Source: an uncultured Alphaproteobacteria bacterium (lineage in GTDB: Bacteria; Pseudomonadota; Alphaproteobacteria; Paracaedibacterales; CAIULA01). From it: DNA of 64,000 nt. The stretch covers positions 124,001 through 188,000 of the forward strand of contig CAIULA010000034.1 in the NCBI GenBank assembly GCA_903899945.1. Reading direction: 5' to 3'. The stretch's first letter is position 1; each line of letters opens with the position of its first letter. This document shows positions 1,915-14,570 of this stretch, in pieces. Made by a program: the position numbers and the translations under genes. The notes under the pieces are model-generated. The model ran no database searches and had not been told where the DNA came from. It was given only the letters and a program-made list of their open reading frames with translations.

Positions 1915-1970
1915 AGCGAGGAAATATCCTCTAATGCTCGCCAAGAACTTTGGGGAATAGACACCTAATA

Positions 1971-2165
1971 ACGGCAAATTCAGGATTAAAAACGAATCAA
2001 TTCCTAGATGGATTCCATGGTCGGGATTCGCTTGCCATAGGAAAACTGGTATGTATTTAGAAAAAAATAAGTTTTCCTCGTGTTTGACACGAGAATCGAT
2101 AGTTATATCATAGAAATACATTGTGTTTTTGCACGGTTCTTTCCCTTTCTAATCCCGATTCGCGT
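1971..2165. repeat. ~195 bp MITE-like repeat, intact copy, between mlaA and clpB
   Basis: Non-coding repeat with imperfect terminal inverted repeats: ACGGCAAATTCAGGATTAAA at the left end and the complement of a matching GATTAGAAA-type end at the right (TTTCTAATCCCGATTCGCGT). Two internal blocks are nearly identical to the interrupted copy at 10527-10665 plus 13097-13160: TGCCATAGGAAAACTGG..ATGTATTTAG (about 2033-2060) and ACATTGTGTTTTTGCACGGT (2118-2137). The stretch 2077-2093 forms a 7-bp hairpin (CTCGTGT/ACACGAG). TAAT-like bases flank both ends and may be a target duplication, but this is weak. It carries no transposase and is probably mobilised in trans. Confidence 0.75.
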
Positions 2166-2177
2166 TAATTCGGTATT

Positions 2178-4748
2178 TCACCCATTCAACTCCAACCCAT
2201 CAGAGCCAACAGTCACGACAACTTTTGAACCGTCAGTTACATCCCCTGATAGAATTTTAAGCGACAAGGGGTCTTGGACTTGACGTTGAATGACTCTTTT
2301 CAAAGGCCTTGCGCCATAGACAGGATCGTACCCAGCTTCGGCTAACCATTGTAAAGCATCTTCTTCAAAATGAAGAGTAATCTTTCTATCAGCAAGCCGT
2401 TTTTCAAGGGTTTTAAGCTGAATCCTAACAATGGTTTTCATATCGTCGCGGTGCAGACGGTTAAAGATAATAATATCATCCAAACGATTTAAAAATTCCG
2501 GCCTAAAGGTTTGCCTTACCACTTGCATCACTTGGTCGCGCACCTTGGGTGGAATATCACCGCTAGGCTCATTAACACTTAATGCTTCTGAGCCTAAGTT
2601 TGAAGTGAGGACAATAATCGTATTTTTAAAGTTAACGTTATGCCCTTGGCTATCGGTTAAACGTCCATCATCTAAAACTTGTAGCAAGATATTGAAAACA
2701 TCGGTGTGGGCCTTTTCAACTTCGTCAAATAAGATGACAGAATAGGGTTTTCTTCGCACAGCTTCGGTGAGCTCGCCGCCTTGTTCGTAACCCACATAGC
2801 CAGGAGGCGCGCCAATAAGCCTTGAGACAGAATGTTTTTCCATATATTCCGACATATCAATGCGGATCATGTTAGAGGAATCATCAAACAGAAAATCAGC
2901 CAAAGCTTTGGTGAGTTCTGTTTTTCCAACGCCGGTTGGCCCTAGAAAAAGAAACGATCCCATAGGACGATTGGGGTCTTGAATGCCAGCACGTGACCTT
3001 CTGACGGCATTGCTGATGGCTTTGATGGCATCTTCTTGACCGACAACGCGTTGACGAAGGTGTTCCTCCATACTCAATAGCTTTTCCCGTTCACCCGTTA
3101 ACATTTTTTCAACAGGAATGCCGGTCCAGCGTGACACAATAAGAGCGATATCGGCTTCGGTGACTTCTTCTTTTATGTTTTTTGAAGAGGTTTTTTCATT
3201 CAGTTCTTTGAGTTTCTTTTCAAGTTCTGGGATAATGCCGTACATAATTTCTCCGGCATGGGTTAAGTCACCTCTTCTTTGGGCTCGTTCTAACTCTGAT
3301 CTTGCACTATCGAGCTGACCTTTAATCTTGCGATCTTCATCTAAAGCGCCTTTTTCTTTTTGCCATACAGCATTTAAAGTCGCAGCATTTTCTTCTAGTT
3401 CAGAAAGTTCTCTTTCCAATTTGTTCAGTCTGTCTTTGGAGGCCTGGTCTGTTTCCTTTTTAAGAGCGGCCTTTTCGATTTTTAACTGAATAATGCGGCG
3501 ATCAAGTTCATCCAATTCTTCTGGTTTTGAATCAACAATCATCCTCAGGCGGCTGGCAGCTTCATCCATTAAATCAATAGCTTTATCGGGCAGAAAACGA
3601 TCACTGATATAACGATGAGAGTAAGTGCAGGCTGCAACAATTGCACTGTCGCTAATGCGGATACCGTGGTGAAGTTCATATTTTTCTTTAAGGCCTCTAA
3701 GGATTGAAATTGAATCTTCAACAGTCGGTTCATCAACCATAACAGGTTGAAATCTTCGTGCTAGGGCAGGGTCCTTTTCAATATGTTGACGGTATTCATC
3801 TAAGGTGGTGGCGCCTATACAATGAAGTTCTCCCCGAGCAAGGGCAGGTTTTAGCATGTTGGATGCATCCATAGCTCCATCGCTTTTTCCAGCTCCTACA
3901 AGAGTGTGAAGTTCGTCAATGAATAAAATAATTTCGCCTTGGGCGTGAGTGATTTCGGAAAGGACGGCTTTTAGACGTTCTTCAAACTCTCCGCGGAATT
4001 TAGCTCCGGCAAGCAAAGCCCCCAGATCTAAAGACATCAGGCGCATATCTTTTAAATTCTCAGGTACATCCCCTTTGATAATGCGCTGTGCAAGGCCTTC
4101 GACAATAGCTGTTTTGCCAACGCCAGGTTCGCCAATTAAGACGGGATTATTTTTTGTTCTTCTAGAAAGAACCTGGATTGTGCGTCTTATTTCTTCATCT
4201 CGGCCGATCACTGGGTCAATTTTCCCAAGACGTGCACTTTGTGTTAGGTCACGGGCATAGCGATTTAAAGCATCATATCCTTCTTCTGCACTAGCAGAGT
4301 CAACTTTACGTCCCTTTCGAAGAAGTTCGATAGATTCATTTAAATTATGAGAATTAAGACCAGAAGCTTCCATTATAGGACGTGTTGGTTGTACCTGGAC
4401 CAGAGCCAGTAAAAACGTATCAACACTAACAAACTTATCTCCTGCCTTATCAGCTATTTTTTCAGCAATTTCAAAGACTTTTGCCATGTCAGGGCTAAGA
4501 TAGACTTGACCTGCAGCGCCGCCGGATACTTTTGGAAGCTTTGAAAGCTCCTGATGAACCAAACTTAAAAGCTTTGAACTATTCGGATTGGCTTTTTGGA
4601 TTATTTGAGAGATAAGGCCCTCTGGGTCATCAAGTAAAACTTTTAAAAGATGAAGTGGATTAAATTGCTGATGGCCTTCGCGAATGGCTAACATCTGTGC
4701 GTTTTGTAACATGCCTTGAGTACGCTTGGTATATCTTTCTAAATTCAT
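2178..4748 (-). CDS. clpB: ATP-dependent chaperone ClpB
   Basis: Hsp100 disaggregase that works with DnaK to resolubilise aggregated protein. At 856 residues it has the usual full length. Visible are the N-terminal repeat domain (1-150), the first AAA+ module with GEPGVGKT (about 205) and [10 protein letters not shown], a coiled-coil middle domain rich in E/K/R (about 400-525), and the second AAA+ module with GPTGVGKT (about 605) and [13 protein letters not shown]-terminal domain follows. The ATG at 4748 is preceded by AAAGGATGG at good spacing. It is transcribed alone; no CIRCE-like operator is visible upstream. The 3' end abuts the ~195 bp repeat. Confidence 0.98.
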
Positions 4749-7379: not shown

Positions 7380-8717
7380 ATGAGATCAATCGAAGTGGAA
7401 TCAATAGTCAGTTACGAAACTATTGGCACTGAAGATCAGTTAAGTAATCGACGAGGGTCTCTAAAAGCGTGGACAATTCTGAGTTGTGCGTGGGCCTTTT
7501 ATCTTTATGAGTATATCTTACGTGTTTCTCCAAGCGTAATGATAAGTGATTTAATGTTGGACTATGGGGTAACCTCTACAGCTCTTGGTGTATTAGTATC
7601 GTTTTATTACTTTTCTTACGTGGCATTGCAAGTTCCTTGCGGGGTGATTGTCGATAGATTTGGTCCAAGAAAAGTTATTACTCTTTCTGCCGTCTTATGT
7701 GTGATTGGTAGTATATATTTTGCTCAAAGTGATACGCTTTTAACGGCTCAAATTGGTCGTTTTTTGATGGGAGCAGGCTCTGCTTGTGCTTATTTAAGTT
7801 GTGCCAAGATTGGTGCAGAGTGGTTTGATAGCAGTAAATTTGCTGGAATTGCCGGAATGACCATGATGATGGGAACGTTGGGTGGAACTTTTGGTGGACG
7901 TCCATGTGCGATGCTGGTTAACACGATTGGTTGGCGTTCTTCTATGTTGGTGGGGGCTGTTGTTGGCTCTTGTATAGCGATTGCAGCGTGGATGATTATT
8001 CGAGATCACCCCAATACGCTCAAAAGAAATCAAAAGGGCGCTGAACATGCGAATGCATCCCTATTAGAAGGATTGAAAATTGTGGCTGCAAATCCACAAA
8101 ATTGGCTGATTGGTCTTTATGGATGCATGATGTATCTTCCCTTGTCGGCTTTTGCTGAGTTATGGGGAGTCCCATTCTTGATGCAGCTTTATAATATCAA
8201 TAATGAGCTTGCTTCAACAGCGAGCATTATGGTTTTTTTGGGGATGGCTCTTGGAACTTTGATTGGACCATGGTTATCAAATAAATGTAAAAGCCGCGTT
8301 AAAATTATGTCATGGTCTGCTTTGGGCACATTCTTGACTTTTTTAGTTGTTTTCTATATTCCGAATATTCCTCTAACTCTTATGTTTCCTCTGCTATTTT
8401 TAGGGGGGATGATTTCAGGTGGGCAGATTCTCTACTTTGCAGCAGCCAAAGAAATTAACCCGGATTATATCAGTGGGACAACAATTGGATTTACCAACTG
8501 TTTGGTAATGGTAAGTGGTGTTATTTTTCAACCTTTACTTGGGATGCTGTTAGATTTGGCCTGGGATGGAAAGATGTCTGCAGAAGGTGCACCAATTTAT
8601 GATCTAACGACATATAAAGTAGCTTTCTCAGCTGTATCTGTTGCGCTTTTGGTGAGTTGGGTTATTGTTCAATATGTGCGTGAGACCTATAACCATGTTG
8701 AAGCTGATACTAACTAG
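7380..8717 (+). CDS. MFS transporter (first of a tandem pair)
   Basis: Twelve-span major facilitator with a cytoplasmic N-terminal tail of about 30 residues. The loop 2-3 signature is present as GVIVDRFGPRKVI (about 83-95). The conserved stretches YEYILRVSPSVMISDLM, RFLMGAGSACAYLSCAKIGAEWF and GTLGGTFGGRPCAMLVNTIGWR are shared nearly block by block with the next gene. ATG at 7380 has AGGAG ten bases upstream, and about 200 bases of promoter space lie between it and the divergent small membrane gene. Substrate cannot be inferred; carriers of this kind are numerous in intracellular alphaproteobacteria and often import host metabolites. Confidence 0.88.
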   Translation: MRSIEVESIVSYETIGTEDQLSNRRGSLKAWTILSCAWAFYLYEYILRVSPSVMISDLMLDYGVTSTALGVLVSFYYFSYVALQVPCGVIVDRFGPRKVITLSAVLCVIGSIYFAQSDTLLTAQIGRFLMGAGSACAYLSCAKIGAEWFDSSKFAGIAGMTMMMGTLGGTFGGRPCAMLVNTIGWRSSMLVGAVVGSCIAIAAWMIIRDHPNTLKRNQKGAEHANASLLEGLKIVAANPQNWLIGLYGCMMYLPLSAFAELWGVPFLMQLYNINNELASTASIMVFLGMALGTLIGPWLSNKCKSRVKIMSWSALGTFLTFLVVFYIPNIPLTLMFPLLFLGGMISGGQILYFAAAKEINPDYISGTTIGFTNCLVMVSGVIFQPLLGMLLDLAWDGKMSAEGAPIYDLTTYKVAFSAVSVALLVSWVIVQYVRETYNHVEADTN

Positions 8718-8788
8718 GTATCAGTTGGACCATTTGTTATTTTAAAATTTAAAGCACTTTGGGCTTTTGTAAATTGAGAAGGTATGTG

Positions 8789-10135
8789 ATGAGTACTGTT
8801 TCCTCTGAAGACACAGTGAGTTTGTCTGAATCAATGGTACCAACCGAAAGGAGGATGAACACGAAAACTTCCACTTTCCAATCCTGGCTTGTATGGGGGA
8901 TTGCGGGAATTTTCTACCTTTACGAAATGGTGTTACGTGTTTCACCAAGCGTTATGACTCATGAACTAATCCAAGATTTTCAAGTAAATGCTATGGCTCT
9001 TGGGGTCCTAACTTCTTTTTATTATTACGCATATGTAATTTTGCAGATCCCATGTGGCCTTTTTGTTGATAAATTAGGACCCCGTAAGATTATAACTTTT
9101 TCCGCTTTTTTGTGCGTTCTGGGGACTTTTTTGTTTGCAGAAAGTCAGAGTTTAGCCATAGCCCAGATAGGAAGATTTTTAATAGGCGCAGGATCAGCTT
9201 GTGCCTTTATTAGCTGCTTGAAAATCACAGGAGTTTGGTTTAAGCCTGCTCAGTTTGCGGTAATTGCTGGATTAACAAATATGATGGGGACGTTAGGGGC
9301 GACTTTTGGTGGACGCCCTATGGCAATGATGGTCAATTCAATGGGATGGCGTCAAGCTGTGTTTACTACGGCTTTAGCAGGAATTCCCGTTATCCTTATT
9401 TCATGGCTTGGAATTAAGGATAAACCGGCTAATGTTAATAAAAAGAAACAAGATAAGGTCAGCAAATCTTTAAGTATAAAAGCAAGCCTTAAAATCATCG
9501 TACAAAACAAGCAGATTTGGCTGGCCGGTATTGTCGGTGGTTTCATGTACTTGCCAATTTCAGCTTTTACTGAATTGTGGGCAGTTCCTTTTTTAATGAC
9601 TAGCTATAATGTTAGTAATGAAATTGCCTCAACAGCGAGCATTATGTTGACCATTGGAATGGCCTTGGGGAGTCCGGTTGCTGCTTGGGCAACAGATTAT
9701 TTTAAGAGCTATGTAAAGGTTATGAGAGTTTCTGCCCTACTAGCAGGGCTTTTGTTTATTGCAATTGCATTTAGTGAACATCTTAGCTTGCCTATGATGT
9801 TTATTTTATTATTCCTGGCAGGTTTGGCAATTGGCGGCCAGGTGTTATGTTTTACTTGTGCTAAGGACCACAGTACGGACGAGGTAAGTGGGACAACCAT
9901 TGCGTTTACGAATGGCCTTGTAATGATGAGCGGCGTTCTTTTTCAGCCGATATTAGGCCTGCTTTTAGATGTGGTTTGGGATGGTCAGCTATCATCAAAT
10001 GGGTTTAGAGTTTATTCACATGCTTGTTACCAAATCTCAATTCTTGCGGTACCTGCCTGTTTAATTCTAAGTTGGTTCTTACTTAGGTTCTTAAAAGATA
10101 CCTATACTCAAGATCATTTGGCAGGAGCAAATTAA
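8789..10135 (+). CDS. MFS transporter (second of a tandem pair)
   Basis: Paralogue of the preceding carrier: YEMVLRVSPSVMTHELI, GLFVDKLGPRKII, RFLIGAGSACAFISCLKITG and GTLGATFGGRPMAMMVNSMGWR align without gaps. Twelve spans are expected. The frame is open from a TTG at 8759, but the ATG at 8789 has GAGAAGG at ideal distance and gives an N-terminal tail like that of its neighbour, so it was chosen (448 residues). The two genes are 71 bases apart and probably arose by tandem duplication followed by divergence. Substrate unknown. Confidence 0.87.
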   Translation: MSTVSSEDTVSLSESMVPTERRMNTKTSTFQSWLVWGIAGIFYLYEMVLRVSPSVMTHELIQDFQVNAMALGVLTSFYYYAYVILQIPCGLFVDKLGPRKIITFSAFLCVLGTFLFAESQSLAIAQIGRFLIGAGSACAFISCLKITGVWFKPAQFAVIAGLTNMMGTLGATFGGRPMAMMVNSMGWRQAVFTTALAGIPVILISWLGIKDKPANVNKKKQDKVSKSLSIKASLKIIVQNKQIWLAGIVGGFMYLPISAFTELWAVPFLMTSYNVSNEIASTASIMLTIGMALGSPVAAWATDYFKSYVKVMRVSALLAGLLFIAIAFSEHLSLPMMFILLFLAGLAIGGQVLCFTCAKDHSTDEVSGTTIAFTNGLVMMSGVLFQPILGLLLDVVWDGQLSSNGFRVYSHACYQISILAVPACLILSWFLLRFLKDTYTQDHLAGAN

Positions 10136-10261
10136 AGGAAAGGATTTTTATAAGAATTCTGGCTATTAATTCGGCATTAGGAAAACGAAAGAATATAAAT
10201 GGGCACTTTGGCCCCGCTCAACGGGGTTCATCCGAGGCTGATTCGCCTAGTGGACTCTACG

Positions 10262-10526
10262 ATCAAGTCTGAAGAACCCTTGAAAAGTAAGGCTGCTTAA
10301 ACTTCTTATTTAAAAAGTCTTCAATCATACTGTAACGTTCTCTCTTTTCCCTTCAGGGGTATCAGTCTACTATCTTCTTGCCACGGGATGCTCTGGCATA
10401 TTCACGAAAAAGGCGATTATCAATTCTAGTTTCGTCAATAAATGCAATCGTCGCTGGATCGATCCCCGATCCCCTCTAGTTTCTTTTCAAACTCAGCTCG
10501 TTTCTTCGGACAACGTTCCGTATAGA
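10262..10526 (-). pseudogene. Decayed IS630-family transposase, DDE half (element IS630-b)
   Basis: On the minus strand the translation reads ERCPKKRAEFEKKLEGI, then after a frame change DPATIAFIDETRIDN and RLFREYARASRGKKIVD, then stops mixed with KRERYSMIEDFLNKKF. This is the central part of an IS630-type orfB, with the first catalytic Asp in FIDE. The frame change is explained by a 7-base tandem duplication, GATCCCC twice at 10461-10474; removing one copy restores LEGIDPATIAF. Two further stops lie downstream. Its 5' partner, orfA, is at 13161-13459 on the other side of a nested insertion. Non-functional. Confidence 0.75.
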
Positions 10527-10665
10527 CCGAGTTTGAGATATTAAAAACGAATAAACCCACAGATGGCTATGGTCGCGCTTCATCTGCCATAGGAAAACTG
10601 GCATGTATTTAGTAAAAAAATACAATTTTTCTGTGGCCCCGACCACATAAGGATCCATGGTTATA
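10527..10665. repeat. ~195 bp MITE-like repeat, interrupted copy, left part
   Basis: Matches the copy at 1971-2165 over GATTAAAAACGAAT-like left end sequence, TGCCATAGGAAAACTGG and ATGTATTTAG. It starts with an end (CCGAGTTTGAGATATTAAAA) that is the approximate inverse of the right end at 13160. A different but again self-complementary hairpin, TGTGG/CCACA (10632-10636, 10643-10647), occupies the position of the CTCGTGT/ACACGAG hairpin of the other copy. The repeat is cut at TTATA by the IS630-a insertion and resumes at 13097. Confidence 0.72.
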
Positions 10666-10678
10666 CCATTTTTCATAA

Positions 10679-11220
10679 TTAATCATACAAATAATTAATA
10701 GAGCAAAGAGATTTTATTTGGTTAGAGGGCAGCGCATTTATAAAGAGGGCAACAGCTTCCATGACAGAAGATAAAGAAGAATAGATTTTATTTCTGATGG
10801 TGTGATTTTTAAGATGTTCCCATAGTCTCTCTACCGGATTGAGTTCAGGAGAGTAAGGAGGAAGGAAAACAATTTCGATTTTATCTGGTATTCTCAGTTT
10901 TTTTGCTTTGTGCCAAGCCGCACCATCCATAACTAATACTATTTCGTCATTTGGAGCTATTTTATGAAACTCTTCCAGAAAAACACTTAAACATTCTGCA
11001 TTAACGTATGGCATTTCAAGAGTAAAATGCTCACCCGTTCCTAGACCAACAGCACTGTATAAATAGGCATTTTTGAAGCCAAGCTTTACAGGAACAGATG
11101 TCCTCTTTCCTGTTTCAAACCAGCCGTGACCAACCTTAGAATGTGTTCCAAAACGAGATTCATCAAAAAAGAAAAGTTTCTTATGCTCTTCCTTTTTTAT
11201 TTTTTCCTGAAGATTTTTTT
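10679..11220 (-). pseudogene. IS630-a transposase, C-terminal DDE part
   Basis: Carries the catalytic triad: FFFDESRFG (first Asp), LVMDGAAWHKAKKL (second Asp) and PPYSPELNPVERLWEHLK (Glu in the IS630 signature). The frame joins the HTH part only through a +1 shift at a run of nine A in the sense strand (plus-strand T run 11214-11222). Loss of one A would give one continuous frame. Some IS630 transposases are made by programmed frameshifting at A runs, but the usual shift is -1, so a simple slippage mutation is equally likely. The gene is dead in any case because of the IS3 insertion upstream. Confidence 0.8.
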
Positions 11221-11623
11221 TTAAATTCTTCCTGAGCCGTTTTATTTGATTTATAGTGAGCAGGCCTTGGAGTTATATAAGAAAATGAAAGCTTTTTCAT
11301 AAACCTGTGAGTTGTTGCTAAACTAATGATGATCGAGTGGTTGTCAGCTATGTATTGCTTAAGTTCGCGCAAGGTTATTGTTGGGTTTCTTTTTATGAAC
11401 TGACGGATGTCTTCTTGGATCTCTTGGGAAAGGTAAGGCCGTCGACCTCGCCCTGCTTTAATCGTTAAGCCAGCCTCAAAGTCTTCTTGAAAGTTTTTTA
11501 TCCAACTCATTAAAGTTGCGCGCGTAATATCATAAATGGTTGCAACGGTTTTAATGCCATGGGCTTTAGCTGATAAAATGGCCTGCAATCGACGACCAGC
11601 TTCTCCTCCACGACCAAGTGAGG
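11181..11623 (-). pseudogene. IS630-a transposase, helix-turn-helix part
   Basis: Winged-helix DNA-binding half. It reads GRGGEAGRRLQAILSAKAHG, then VATIYDITRATLMSWIKNF (HTH), AGRGRRPYLSQEIQEDIRQF and TITLRELKQYIADNH. The longest frame with a start codon begins at a TTG (11588), but similarity continues upstream to the IS3 junction. The natural N terminus (MARQSKAISDELYEQAKKSL) is found at 12948-13021, beyond the IS3 element. Confidence 0.8.
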
Positions 11624-11653
11624 TGGTTCCGTTTGTCTAGACAATTTTTTAGG

Positions 11654-12592
11654 TCAGTTTGAGATATAATTCTCCTTTGTTAAAGTTAAATTATGTTGTT
11701 GTTGCTGTGCCTGTTGAACTGTGGGTAAGTCGTTAGACTTATCCATCATTTCAATAGGCAGGTTTTCTTTAAAATGGACCTCTCTTGGCGCTTGATAATC
11801 CAAAGACTGGTGAGGCCTTCGATTGTTATAGAAATCCATGTATTCTTCCACGGCTTGCTTTGCCTCCTTTACAGTATCAAGCTCAATTCTATAAATTTTC
11901 TCCTGCTTCAAAGAACGCCAAAACCGTTCGATAAAAACATTATCTAAAGCTCTTCCTTTTCCATCCATACTGATAGAAATTTTCTTTGCTTCTAAAACCA
12001 ATACAAAGGCCTGAGAGGTAAACTGAACTCCTTGATCCGTGTTAAAAATGTCAGGTTTACCATACAAAGATAAAGCTTCCTCTAAAGCATCTACACAAAA
12101 GTCACTGCTCAAACTAATCGATACTTTCCAACTCAGAACGTAACGGCTGTACCAATCGATAATGGCAACCAAGTACACAAACCCTTGCCTCAGCCTTACA
12201 AAAGTTATATCTGCGCTCCAAACTTGATTCGGTTTTTCAATCTCTAAACCTTTCAACAAATACGGGTAAACCTTATGAGCCTGGTTGCGACGGCTTAAAT
12301 TCATCTTTGGATAAATTGTTTCTATCCCCAGAATCTGATAGTAACGGCTCACTCGTTTCCTCCCAATTGGGTATCCTTCCTTTGTCAAAACATGCTTCAT
12401 ACGTCTTGCACCGTAATAAGGGTGCTCTGTAAAAATCTCATCCATCCTCCTCATGATCGCGTAGTCCCCAGGGCTAAACCCTTTGGGCTTAAAATAATAA
12501 CTGGATCGGTTTAACCCTAAAAGCTCACATTGCCTCTTTATGCTCAGCCTCTTGTGCTCTTTGTCAATCAGGCTTCTTTTATCCTTTACCAA
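11654..12592 (-). CDS. IS3-family transposase OrfB (DDE integrase domain)
   Basis: Catalytic half of the IS3 transposase, 312 residues. HTH_21-like start (RSSYYFKP, then MDEIFTEHPYYGARRMKHVL), then the rve-type integrase core. Catalytic residues are in VWSADITFVRL (Asp), IFNTDQGVQFTS (Asp) and NVFIERFWRSLKQEKIY (Glu), with the YNNRRPHQSLDYQAP motif near the end. It overlaps orfA by 14 bases and begins at a TTG. A run of nine A in the sense strand (plus-strand 12603-12611) within the end of orfA is a likely -1 slippage site for the OrfAB fusion. Intact by eye. Confidence 0.92.
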   Translation of the reverse strand: MVKDKRSLIDKEHKRLSIKRQCELLGLNRSSYYFKPKGFSPGDYAIMRRMDEIFTEHPYYGARRMKHVLTKEGYPIGRKRVSRYYQILGIETIYPKMNLSRRNQAHKVYPYLLKGLEIEKPNQVWSADITFVRLRQGFVYLVAIIDWYSRYVLSWKVSISLSSDFCVDALEEALSLYGKPDIFNTDQGVQFTSQAFVLVLEAKKISISMDGKGRALDNVFIERFWRSLKQEKIYRIELDTVKEAKQAVEEYMDFYNNRRPHQSLDYQAPREVHFKENLPIEMMDKSNDLPTVQQAQQQQHNLTLTKENYISN

Positions 12593-12875
12593 AGAGAGTA
12601 GATTTTTTTTTGAGCCAGTCCCTCTCTACTGTTAATTGTCCTATTTGTTCATAAAGCTGTTTGATGAGATCTTCTTGGTTCGCATCCTTGATCTTCAATT
12701 TTGATTTAAACCCAGAGACCATTGATTCCAAGGCTTCTTTGCGCCACCGATTGATCTGAGTCGCGTGAACACCATATTTGCTACTGATTTGCGCCATAGT
12801 CAGCTCACCCTTCAGGGCCTCTAGTGCAACTTTCGCTTTTTCTTCTGAACTGTACTCTCTTGCTTTCTTGCTCAT
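12579..12875 (-). CDS. IS3-family transposase OrfA (HTH)
   Basis: DNA-binding subunit, 98 residues. Contains the IS3/IS911 helix-turn-helix (EEKAKVALEALKGELTMAQI then SSKYGVHATQINRWRKEALE) and a leucine-zipper-like C terminus (LIKQLYEQIGQLTVERDWLKKK). Its last codons contain an A9 run that can promote frameshifting into OrfB. Confidence 0.92.
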   Translation of the reverse strand: MSKKAREYSSEEKAKVALEALKGELTMAQISSKYGVHATQINRWRKEALESMVSGFKSKLKIKDANQEDLIKQLYEQIGQLTVERDWLKKKSTLFGKG

Positions 12876-12947
12876 CTCTAGCTCCTATCTAAGCTAGAGA
12901 ATTATATCTCACTTAGTACCATTTTCCTGTCCAGTTTTTGGGGACCA

Positions 12948-13021
12948 TTATTAAGTTTCTTCAAACTTTTCTTTGCTTGTTCATACAACTCATCACTAAT
13001 TGCTTTACTTTGTCGTGCCAT
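12948..13021 (-). pseudogene. N-terminal fragment of IS630-a transposase
   Basis: Short frame starting with ATG at 13021 and reading MARQSKAISDELYEQAKKSL then KKLNN before running into the IS3 tip. AGGG lies upstream of the ATG. It supplies the missing N terminus of the transposase whose HTH part resumes at 11623, which proves that IS3 entered the 5' end of this gene. Confidence 0.7.
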
Positions 13022-13096
13022 TGGTAGATTCCCTGAAATCCTTTAATAATCCACATTATAGCACACTAAATATGTTCATTTAAATATGAAAAATGG

Positions 13097-13160
13097 TATT
13101 ATATCATAGCAAGACATTGTGTTTTTGCACGGTCCTTTCCATTTTTAATCCCGAATTCGC
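13097..13160. repeat. ~195 bp MITE-like repeat, interrupted copy, right part
   Basis: Continues the repeat of 10527-10665: TTATATCATAG, ACATTGTGTTTTTGCACGGT and the end TTTTTAATCCCGAATTCG match 2102-2165. The bases just outside (TACACG on the sense of the host transposase here, TATACG beyond the other end at 10521-10526) look like a 6-base target duplication with one mismatch. Confidence 0.72.
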
Positions 13161-13459
13161 GTGTACAGAGTGTTGTGGTCTTTTTTTCGAGTCACATTCA
13201 GCTTCCTCAACCATTCCCAAACATTAGACGCGCTTAATCCTAAGGCAGTCTTTGTTTCTTTGAGAGTGTGATCGGGATTTTATTCAACGTAGAAAAGTAG
13301 CTTATCAGGGCTTATCTTGTGCGGAAATTTTGTTCGTTTCTTAGAGGCCAAAGTCCAAGTTTTATGACGCCTCAACCAACGATAGATGGTGTCTTCACCA
13401 ATTCCAGAAACTTTTGACATCTCCCTTTTTCTTCTCACTTGAGAAACAAAAGAAATAAT
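13161..13459 (-). pseudogene. Decayed IS630-family transposase, HTH half (element IS630-b)
   Basis: Minus-strand translation reads MSKVSGIGEDTIYRWLRRHK, then KRTKFPHKISPDKLLFYVE, an in-frame TAA, then NPDHTLKETKTALGLSASNV and WEWLRKLNVTRKKDHNTLYT. This is the two-HTH orfA of the Synechocystis-type IS630 group. Its last residues (HNTLYT) join directly to ERCPKKRAEFEKKL of the fragment at 10526, so the ~195 bp repeat was inserted exactly there. Stops and the truncated 5' end make it non-functional. Confidence 0.75.
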
Positions 13460-13488
13460 CTAAAAACTATACGAGGTTTTTTAGTTTT

Positions 13489-13887
13489 TTAACGAGGAGC
13501 GGCTGGACAACGTCCACCAGCACAAGGGGGAGCTGCCAAGACCGGCGTTGCTCTTGCTACAACCATTGCTTGAAGTTCACGAATTCCTCTTTTAAATTCT
13601 TTGGTTCTCTCATTATTATACATAAACGCATTGATAAGGGCAGGCACCAGTGTAGCGCTGTCTACAGACCTTAGGGTTGTGCTGTTAAAGGTTCTACCAG
13701 CAAGAATTGCTGTAATCGAAGGGATCTCAGCCAACATATCTAACTTTCCAGCATCAATGACATCATAAAGGCCATTCAAGAGAGCCGTACCGTCTCTTTG
13801 GTCTTTTGCAGCATCAGCTGCGTTAGCTGCTTGAAAAGATGCGGCTAACAACAACACGAAAATCGTTGCTTTGGTAAATAGTTTCAT
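13489..13887 (-). CDS. Small exported protein of unknown function with a Cys-rich C terminus
   Basis: The frame is open from 13950, but the ATG at 13887 has GGAGGG eight bases upstream and gives a clean signal peptide (KLFTKATIFVLLLAASFQAANA, cleavage likely before ADAA); it was chosen, giving 132 residues. The mature part is helical and unremarkable (TALLNGLYDVIDAGKLDMLA and similar) and ends in PPCAGGRCPAAPR. No family recognised. It directly follows the MlaC-like gene, 23 bases away and on the same strand, so the two probably share a transcript. A protein at 47.2 kb is also exported and has similar CxxGxC-type tail motifs, but no wider similarity is evident. Confidence 0.7.
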   Translation of the reverse strand: MKLFTKATIFVLLLAASFQAANAADAAKDQRDGTALLNGLYDVIDAGKLDMLAEIPSITAILAGRTFNSTTLRSVDSATLVPALINAFMYNNERTKEFKRGIRELQAMVVARATPVLAAPPCAGGRCPAAPR

Positions 13888-13910
13888 TATTCCCTCCACA
13901 GACGATCTAC

Positions 13911-14570
13911 TTATCTGTTTAAATATGCATTGACTGTATTTGTAAACCATGTAAGAAACGTTTGAGGTTTACCATCACCCTTATCCGGGGCAGAATAAAA
14001 CGCTCTGATCTCACTCGTTTGATTGCTTTTTTGGCTGATTCCTTCAAGACCTAAATCATCTAACTTTAAAGCACCGTTTTCTTTAATAATATAAAACTGA
14101 ACAGCTGCTGTTTTACCGTCATAGAAAAATGAAATTTCTACTTTTGCCATTCTTTGATCAGGAGAAAGTTCCACTTTTGCAGTTTTTTCATCATAGCCGG
14201 CCTCTTGGAAAACTTTCATTTTTTCAGGACTACCATAAAACTTAACTTCATAGCCTACGAACTGAGAAATAAAGTTTTTGATGTAGTTTTCTTGATCCGC
14301 TACTGCACTTAATATTACTCTTCCTAATATGCTTCTTGCAGTACCATTTGCAATTTTTGTTACCAAGAAATCATGAAATTTCTTTTTAAGCTCAGGACTT
14401 GGTTCTCTTGTTAAATCAGTATGTTGCTTTGCAAGGGCTTTGCCATCATCAATAAATTGTTTGGTGAAGAGAAGAGCTTCTTCTCTTGTAAGTGTTTGAT
14501 TGGCAGCATTTGACTCAAATGAAAAAAATACAAGGATTGTGGCCGCAAAAATGCTTATTAAAGATTTCAT
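13911..14570 (-). CDS. Exported MlaC-like (Ttg2D family) protein
   Basis: 219 residues with a signal peptide (LISIFAATILVFFSFESNAA). The layout fits MlaC, the periplasmic phospholipid shuttle of the Mla pathway: a helical N-terminal half, ARSILGRVIL (the 'iLG' motif), YIKNFISQFVGYEVKFYG, a beta-rich part (KVELSPDQRMAKVEISFFYD, AAVQFYIIKENGALKLDDLG) and LEGISQKSNQTSEIRAFY, which parallels the family's 'D..veGvS...nyr..f' motif. Similarity is distant and the assignment is tentative. No mlaDEF genes are adjacent; an mlaA gene is 12 kb away. Confidence 0.55.
   Translation of the reverse strand: MKSLISIFAATILVFFSFESNAANQTLTREEALLFTKQFIDDGKALAKQHTDLTREPSPELKKKFHDFLVTKIANGTARSILGRVILSAVADQENYIKNFISQFVGYEVKFYGSPEKMKVFQEAGYDEKTAKVELSPDQRMAKVEISFFYDGKTAAVQFYIIKENGALKLDDLGLEGISQKSNQTSEIRAFYSAPDKGDGKPQTFLTWFTNTVNAYLNR

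What the first reader, a model, noticed from the sequence alone, without database searches (positions are those of the whole stretch)
10262..13459. Four mobile elements nested in one another
Read on the minus strand, an old IS630-type transposase gene (HTH half ending HNTLYT at 13161, DDE half beginning ERCPKKRAEF at 10526) is split by a ~195 bp repeat. That repeat is split by a second IS630 (12-bp terminal repeats at 10666 and 13096, TA flanks). The second IS630 is split in its 5' coding end by an IS3 element with both orfs open. The order of insertion can thus be read off: IS630-b, then repeat, then IS630-a, then IS3. Outer layers are decayed and the innermost looks intact, as expected of a relative clock. 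The locus lies just downstream of a tandem transporter pair and is a safe landing site.
Basis: partly seen in the sequence, partly recalled or inferred. Interest (0 to 1): 0.75.

Follow-up and report, generated by a model that had tools for sequence, protein, structure and literature searches.

The report
Three insertions nested in transposase relic
A dead transposase gene in this alphaproteobacterial genome was hit by a 0.2-kb mobile repeat, which was hit by an IS630-type element, which was hit by an IS3-type element; each boundary can be shown to within a base or a few, but pile-ups like this are ordinary in IS-rich bacterial genomes.

Summary
Read on the minus strand, window 10262-13475 holds four nested layers. 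(1) A truncated, decayed IS630-family transposase gene (IS630-b). (2) A ~200-bp MITE-like repeat inside it. (3) An IS630-family element (IS630-a) inside the MITE. (4) An intact-looking IS3-family element (1334 bp) inside IS630-a.

Each junction was tested. Taking out IS3 plus one AAG duplicate rejoins the IS630-a gene in frame. Taking out IS630-a restores the sequence of uninterrupted MITE copies elsewhere in the genome and genus. Taking out the MITE rejoins the IS630-b halves, which align without a gap at the join to an uninterrupted homologue.

Corrections: IS3 runs 11619-12952 with AAG duplicates. The TA flanks given for IS630-a are probably part of its ends; other copies imply a TTA duplication, or TA with a one-base asymmetry. 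IS630-a is not visibly decayed: its two frames overlap at an A9 run also found in a ~50% diverged relative, so the break looks programmed. Nesting alone does not strictly fix the order, because a loaded element could have moved as a unit.

This is an ordinary transposon pile-up. The genus-level MITE family appears undescribed (limited literature check) but is of a known kind.

The parts
13168..13475 (-). Layer 1, first half: HTH part of the relic IS630-family transposase gene IS630-b (stop codons and small indels)
   Evidence: 60% aa identity to the HTH ORF of an uninterrupted homologue in G034; NCBIfam transpos_IS630 hit for the joined relic, E=8e-15 but below the family cut-off
10262..10519 (-). 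Layer 1, second half: start of the DDE part of IS630-b; truncated before the second catalytic Asp
   Evidence: 56-59% aa identity to the G034 DDE ORF in two frames; joined DNA colinear with the G034 homologue across the junction
10520..10524 (.). Candidate 5-bp target duplication of the MITE, GTATA (left)
   Evidence: pairs with GTACA at 13163-13167, 1 mismatch; another copy (G000:C33:66712) has AAGTA/AAGTA by inspection; other copies give only partial matches
10525..10663 (+). Layer 2, left part of the ~200-bp MITE-like repeat, including a decayed left inverted repeat
   Evidence: aligned with full copies in G000, G001 and G002
10664..13098 (-). Layer 3: IS630-family element IS630-a, 1098 bp once IS3 and one AAG are discounted; 20-bp TIR with 18 matches, ends TACCATTTTTCAT
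   Evidence: NCBIfam NF033545 IS630 transposase 234.9 bits on the joined protein, cut-off 100
11181..11618 (-). IS630-a HTH frame, part after IS3 (the first 22-23 codons lie at 12953-13021)
   Evidence: taking out IS3 plus one AAG gives one open frame MARQSKAISDELYEQAKKSLKKL-GRGGEAGRRLQAI...
11214..11222 (-). A9 slippery run (minus strand) where the HTH frame passes to the DDE frame of IS630-a
   Evidence: GAAGAATTTAAAAAAAAATCTTCA is present in the same place in the G003:C53 relative, which also has two frames; G038 has an A6 run there
10679..11272 (-). IS630-a DDE open frame (197 aa)
   Evidence: Pfam DDE_3 E=1e-19 on its C-terminal 111 aa
11619..12952 (-). Layer 4: IS3-family element, 1334 bp (right end certain to one base)
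   Evidence: 89% identical copy in G001:C84 with the same ends to within one base; in-frame repair of IS630-a when removed
11616..11618 (.). IS3 target duplication AAG (left); right copy at 12953-12955
11654..12592 (-). IS3 orfB, 312 aa, integrase core
   Evidence: NCBIfam transpos_IS3 278 bits, cut-off 160; Pfam rve
12579..12875 (-). IS3 orfA, 98 aa, HTH; overlaps orfB at an A9 run, the usual IS3 frameshift layout
   Evidence: Pfam HTH_Tnp_1; A9 run
13102..13162 (+). Layer 2, right part of the MITE with intact right inverted repeat (13099-13101 is the TTA copy next to IS630-a)
13163..13167 (.). Candidate 5-bp target duplication of the MITE, GTACA (right)

Best explanation
Successive independent transpositions piled up in a non-coding gap between two convergent genes: the second of a tandem pair of MFS transporter genes on the left, and a small gene of unknown function on the right. 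An IS630-family transposase copy died there. A non-autonomous MITE-like repeat landed in the dead gene, with a 5-bp duplication inferred. An intact IS630-family element landed at a TA/TTA site in the MITE, and an IS3-family element landed in the 5' end of its transposase gene with a 3-bp AAG duplication. Shown by sequence: each join and each family assignment. Inferred: that the events took place at this locus in that order, and that the gap tolerated them because nothing there is selected. No host function is implied.
For: IS3 into IS630-a: AAG duplicates, a second IS3 copy with the same ends to within one base in G001, and in-frame restoration of the interrupted transposase. IS630-a into MITE: uninterrupted copies in the same genome and genus; the join with one TTA removed has no extra base at that point. 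MITE into IS630-b: joined halves align colinearly with an uninterrupted homologue through the join, 65% over 546 bp, E=4e-57, reading KKTTTLYTERCPKKRAEF against KKKTTLYAERCQEKRAQF. Families. IS3 and IS630-a have no other full copy in the genome, so a misassembly of repeats is unlikely.
Against: No genome with an empty site at this exact locus was found: genus-mates G001 and G002 carry other sequence between the same genes, about 2.8 and 0.9 kb. IS630-b has no identifiable ends or target duplication. Transfer of a loaded unit (IS630-a::IS3, or MITE::IS630-a) is not excluded. The IS3 terminal repeats alone are weak (12 of 26 matches ungapped).
Confidence: 0.9

Rival explanations
1. Compound transfer: IS3 entered IS630-a elsewhere, and the loaded element was then mobilised into the MITE in trans; or the MITE already carrying IS630-a moved into IS630-b. 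The nesting is the same but the order at this locus differs.
For: IS630-a's terminal repeats are well preserved (18 of 20), so a transposase acting in trans could move the loaded element.
Against: The genome holds no other IS630-a and no other loaded copy; the G001 copy of IS3 is not in an IS630 element; the left MITE end is decayed.
Confidence: 0.06
2. Assembly artefact: a draft assembler joined unrelated repeats.
For: Draft genome of 46 contigs; no reads were available here.
Against: The locus is inside a 302-kb contig; IS3 and IS630-a occur once in the genome; precise duplications and restored frames at the joins.
Confidence: 0.02
3. The nested array is a working unit that is kept, for example a terminator or regulatory structure for the flanking genes.
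For: The MITE core holds hairpins, and a MITE copy also lies just after the same transporter gene in G001.
Against: The MITE is split by 2.4 kb here; the G001 copy has different neighbours and looks like a separate insertion; G002 has none in this gap.
Confidence: 0.02

Closest known systems
IS3 family (orfA/orfB, -1 frameshift)
   Same: Two overlapping orfs with HTH and rve core, A9 run in the overlap, 3-bp duplication, TG-type end on one side; NCBIfam IS3 above cut-off
   Different: New element at the sequence level: 89% DNA identity to the G001 copy, 67% protein identity to the next relative (Candidatus Arcanobacter lacustris)
IS630 / Tc1-mariner family
   Same: HTH plus DDE_3 transposase, inverted ends, TA-containing target; two-frame layout as reported for some IS630 members (PMC5009743)
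   Different: Target duplication is either TTA, or TA with a one-base asymmetry; relatives in the genomes searched are about 55% or less identical in protein
Prokaryotic MITEs, e.g. QMITE2 of Coxiella (PMC10969869) and the IS982-derived MITE of Cardinium (PMC9769881)
   Same: About 200 bp, non-coding, inverted ends of ~22 bp, hairpin-forming core, multi-copy, short duplications, insertion into other mobile elements
   Different: Sequence family found here in one genus only, with the ends alone shared with a sister genus; parental transposase not identified

Membership tests
IS3 | orfA/orfB overlapping in -1 phase with HTH and DDE integrase core | tested here: met
IS3 | 3-5 bp target duplication | tested here: met
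   AAG/AAG; in-frame repair
IS3 | Terminal inverted repeats, usually TG..CA ends | tested here: inconclusive
   One end TGAGGTGG; the other AATAATGG; 12 of 26 matches
IS630 (IS630-a) | IS630-type transposase above the curated cut-off | tested here: met
   234.9 bits against cut-off 100 on the joined protein
IS630 (IS630-a) | TA target duplication | tested here: inconclusive
   Other MITE copies allow TTA, or TA with a one-base asymmetric end; the TA flanks at 10664/13097 leave 5 extra bases
IS630 (IS630-b) | Continuous HTH-DDE transposase once the insert is discounted | tested here: met
   Colinear with the G034 homologue; the NCBIfam hit is below cut-off, as expected of a truncated gene
IS630 (IS630-b) | Terminal repeats and TA duplication | tested here: not met
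   No ends found; relic truncated on both sides. It is therefore filed as a transposase relic, not an element
MITE | Short, non-coding, multi-copy, with inverted ends | tested here: met
MITE | Target duplication of constant length | tested here: inconclusive
   5 bp fits GTATA/GTACA and AAGTA/AAGTA; several copies match at only 3-4 of 5
MITE | Ends shared with an autonomous parental element (usual origin of a MITE, not strictly required) | tested here: inconclusive
   No transposase gene between matching ends was found in the 11 genomes searched, several of them drafts; only another ~215-bp element in G006 shares the ends

The most novel reading that the evidence does not exclude
The ~200-bp repeat is a genus-specific mobile family with hairpins partly kept by paired changes (CCTGTGG..CCACAGG against CCTTGTG..CACAAGG). 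It often lies near gene ends and might act as an RNA element (terminator or stabiliser), with its ends serving an unidentified transposase also active in a sister genus.
Probability: 0.15. Interest if true: 0.35.

Novelty: new member of a known kind. Interest (0 to 1): 0.18.

Why it matters
It is a clean textbook example of nested transposition with every junction checkable, useful for defining the ends of three new elements in a poorly known alphaproteobacterial lineage. It teaches nothing new about mechanism; MITE insertions into other mobile elements are reported in other IS-rich symbionts (for example PMC9769881).

Tried and rejected
An empty orthologous site in G001-G007 was sought; G001 and G002 keep the flanking genes but carry other sequence in the gap. 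An autonomous parent of the MITE was sought through its ends; none was found. The sequence left of IS630-b (10136-10262) was tested as a further repeat; it has no other copy in the genome. Rfam has nothing in the nested region. A TA duplication at 10664/13097 for IS630-a was rejected as the best fit because it leaves 5 extra bases against every other MITE copy. The public record of G001 was not in the annotated collections. A literature search for nested insertion sequences gave little that bears directly; one query was malformed.

Full report
SETTING. The window is part of contig 34 (302 kb) of a 1.69-Mb, 46-contig draft genome, about 91% complete. Two genus-mates are held (G001, G002). G001 contig 84 has the same length (34,238 bp) as JAIEPD010000009.1, an 'Alphaproteobacteria bacterium' MAG, which carries the matching IS3, so G001 is very probably that MAG (inference). 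The array lies between two tandem MFS genes (7380-8717 and 8759-10135, plus strand) and a 153-aa gene of unknown function on the minus strand, followed by an MlaC-like gene and groEL.

IS3 LAYER. orfA (98 aa) and orfB (312 aa) are open and match the IS3 family. A copy 89% identical over 1333 bp in G001:C84 shares the left end at 11619 and the right end to within one base. AAG stands directly outside both ends. Taking out 11619-12952 and one AAG gives a single open frame, MARQSKAISDELYEQAKKSLKKL-GRGGEAGRRLQAI. The boundary is therefore fixed by three independent signs. The inverted ends by themselves are weak (12 of 26).

IS630-a LAYER. The joined transposase scores 234.9 bits against the IS630 model (cut-off 100). 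Its ends match 18 of 20. It is read in two frames that overlap at an A9 run. A relative in G003 (about 41-55% protein identity) has the same two-frame layout and an identical 24-base stretch around the run, and one in G038 has a shorter A6 run there. Frameshifting or slippage is known for some IS630 members (PMC5009743). The two frames are therefore more likely design than decay, and IS630-a was probably intact when IS3 struck; this is an inference from conservation, not a test of expression.

MITE LAYER. The repeat family has about 7 further copies in this genome and more in G001 and G002. Uninterrupted copies read GGTTATATC where the window has GGTTA, then IS630-a, then TTATATC. A TTA duplication with ends TACC...GGTA explains this exactly; a TA duplication with one extra T at one end does too. 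Inverted ends of ~22 bp (ACGCGAATTCGGGATTAAAAA) and a candidate 5-bp duplication (GTATA/GTACA here; AAGTA/AAGTA in G000:C33:66712) fit a MITE, though several copies match at only 3-4 of 5 bases. RNAalifold finds hairpins with a few two-sided changes, but the covariation term is not favourable overall (+0.51), so a conserved RNA is not shown.

IS630-b LAYER. Joining the part left of the MITE (up to 10524) and the part right of it (from 13168) gives a 546-bp alignment to an uninterrupted IS630 gene in G034 at 65% (E=4e-57), through the join without a gap. The reading KKTTTLYTERCPKKRAEF matches KKKTTLYAERCQEKRAQF. The relic has stops and frame changes, lacks the rest of the DDE domain, and has no recognisable ends. 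It is a transposase relic rather than a whole element.

CHRONOLOGY. Nesting shows which sequence interrupts which. It does not by itself show that each event happened here, since a loaded element can move as a unit. No loaded copy was found elsewhere in this genome, and successive insertion is the simplest reading. Decay follows the nesting only loosely: IS630-b is ruined, the MITE has a worn left end, and IS630-a and IS3 both look intact apart from the insertion.

SITE. The gap is between convergent genes and differs in size and content among the three genus members: 3.35 kb here, about 2.8 kb in G001 with its own MITE and two long open frames, about 0.9 kb in G002. That fits a tolerant, variable site, but selection was not tested.

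VERDICT. Confirmed and ordinary: a new example of a well-known kind. Insertion of MITEs into other mobile elements is reported in IS-rich symbionts (PMC9769881).

Noticed in passing
window 1969-2168 (G000:C34:125969-126168): Another, uninterrupted copy of the same MITE-like repeat lies in the window.
   Followed up: yes
L059 about 3149-3338 (G001:C79:11149-11338): In genus-mate G001 a MITE of the same family sits just after the orthologous MFS gene, apparently an independent insertion at the same gene end.
   Followed up: partly
L142 1500-1718 (G006:C229): In a sister genus a ~215-bp element shares the MITE's ends but not its core, suggesting a common mobilising transposase.
   Followed up: partly
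window 11214-11222; L067: A9 slip site of IS630-a with an identical 24-base context in a relative of about 50% protein identity: likely programmed frameshift or transcript slippage.
   Followed up: partly
window 7380-10135: Tandem MFS transporter genes, about 49% identical to each other; neighbouring pairs of such genes recur in most genomes of the order searched.
   Followed up: no
window 13489-13950; L059, L060: The 153-aa gene next to the array has two tandem homologues in each of G001 and G002 but only one was noticed here.
   Followed up: no
L060 about 3380-4250: The same gap in G002 holds short dispersed repeats and an open frame of 159 codons unrelated to those in the window.
   Followed up: no
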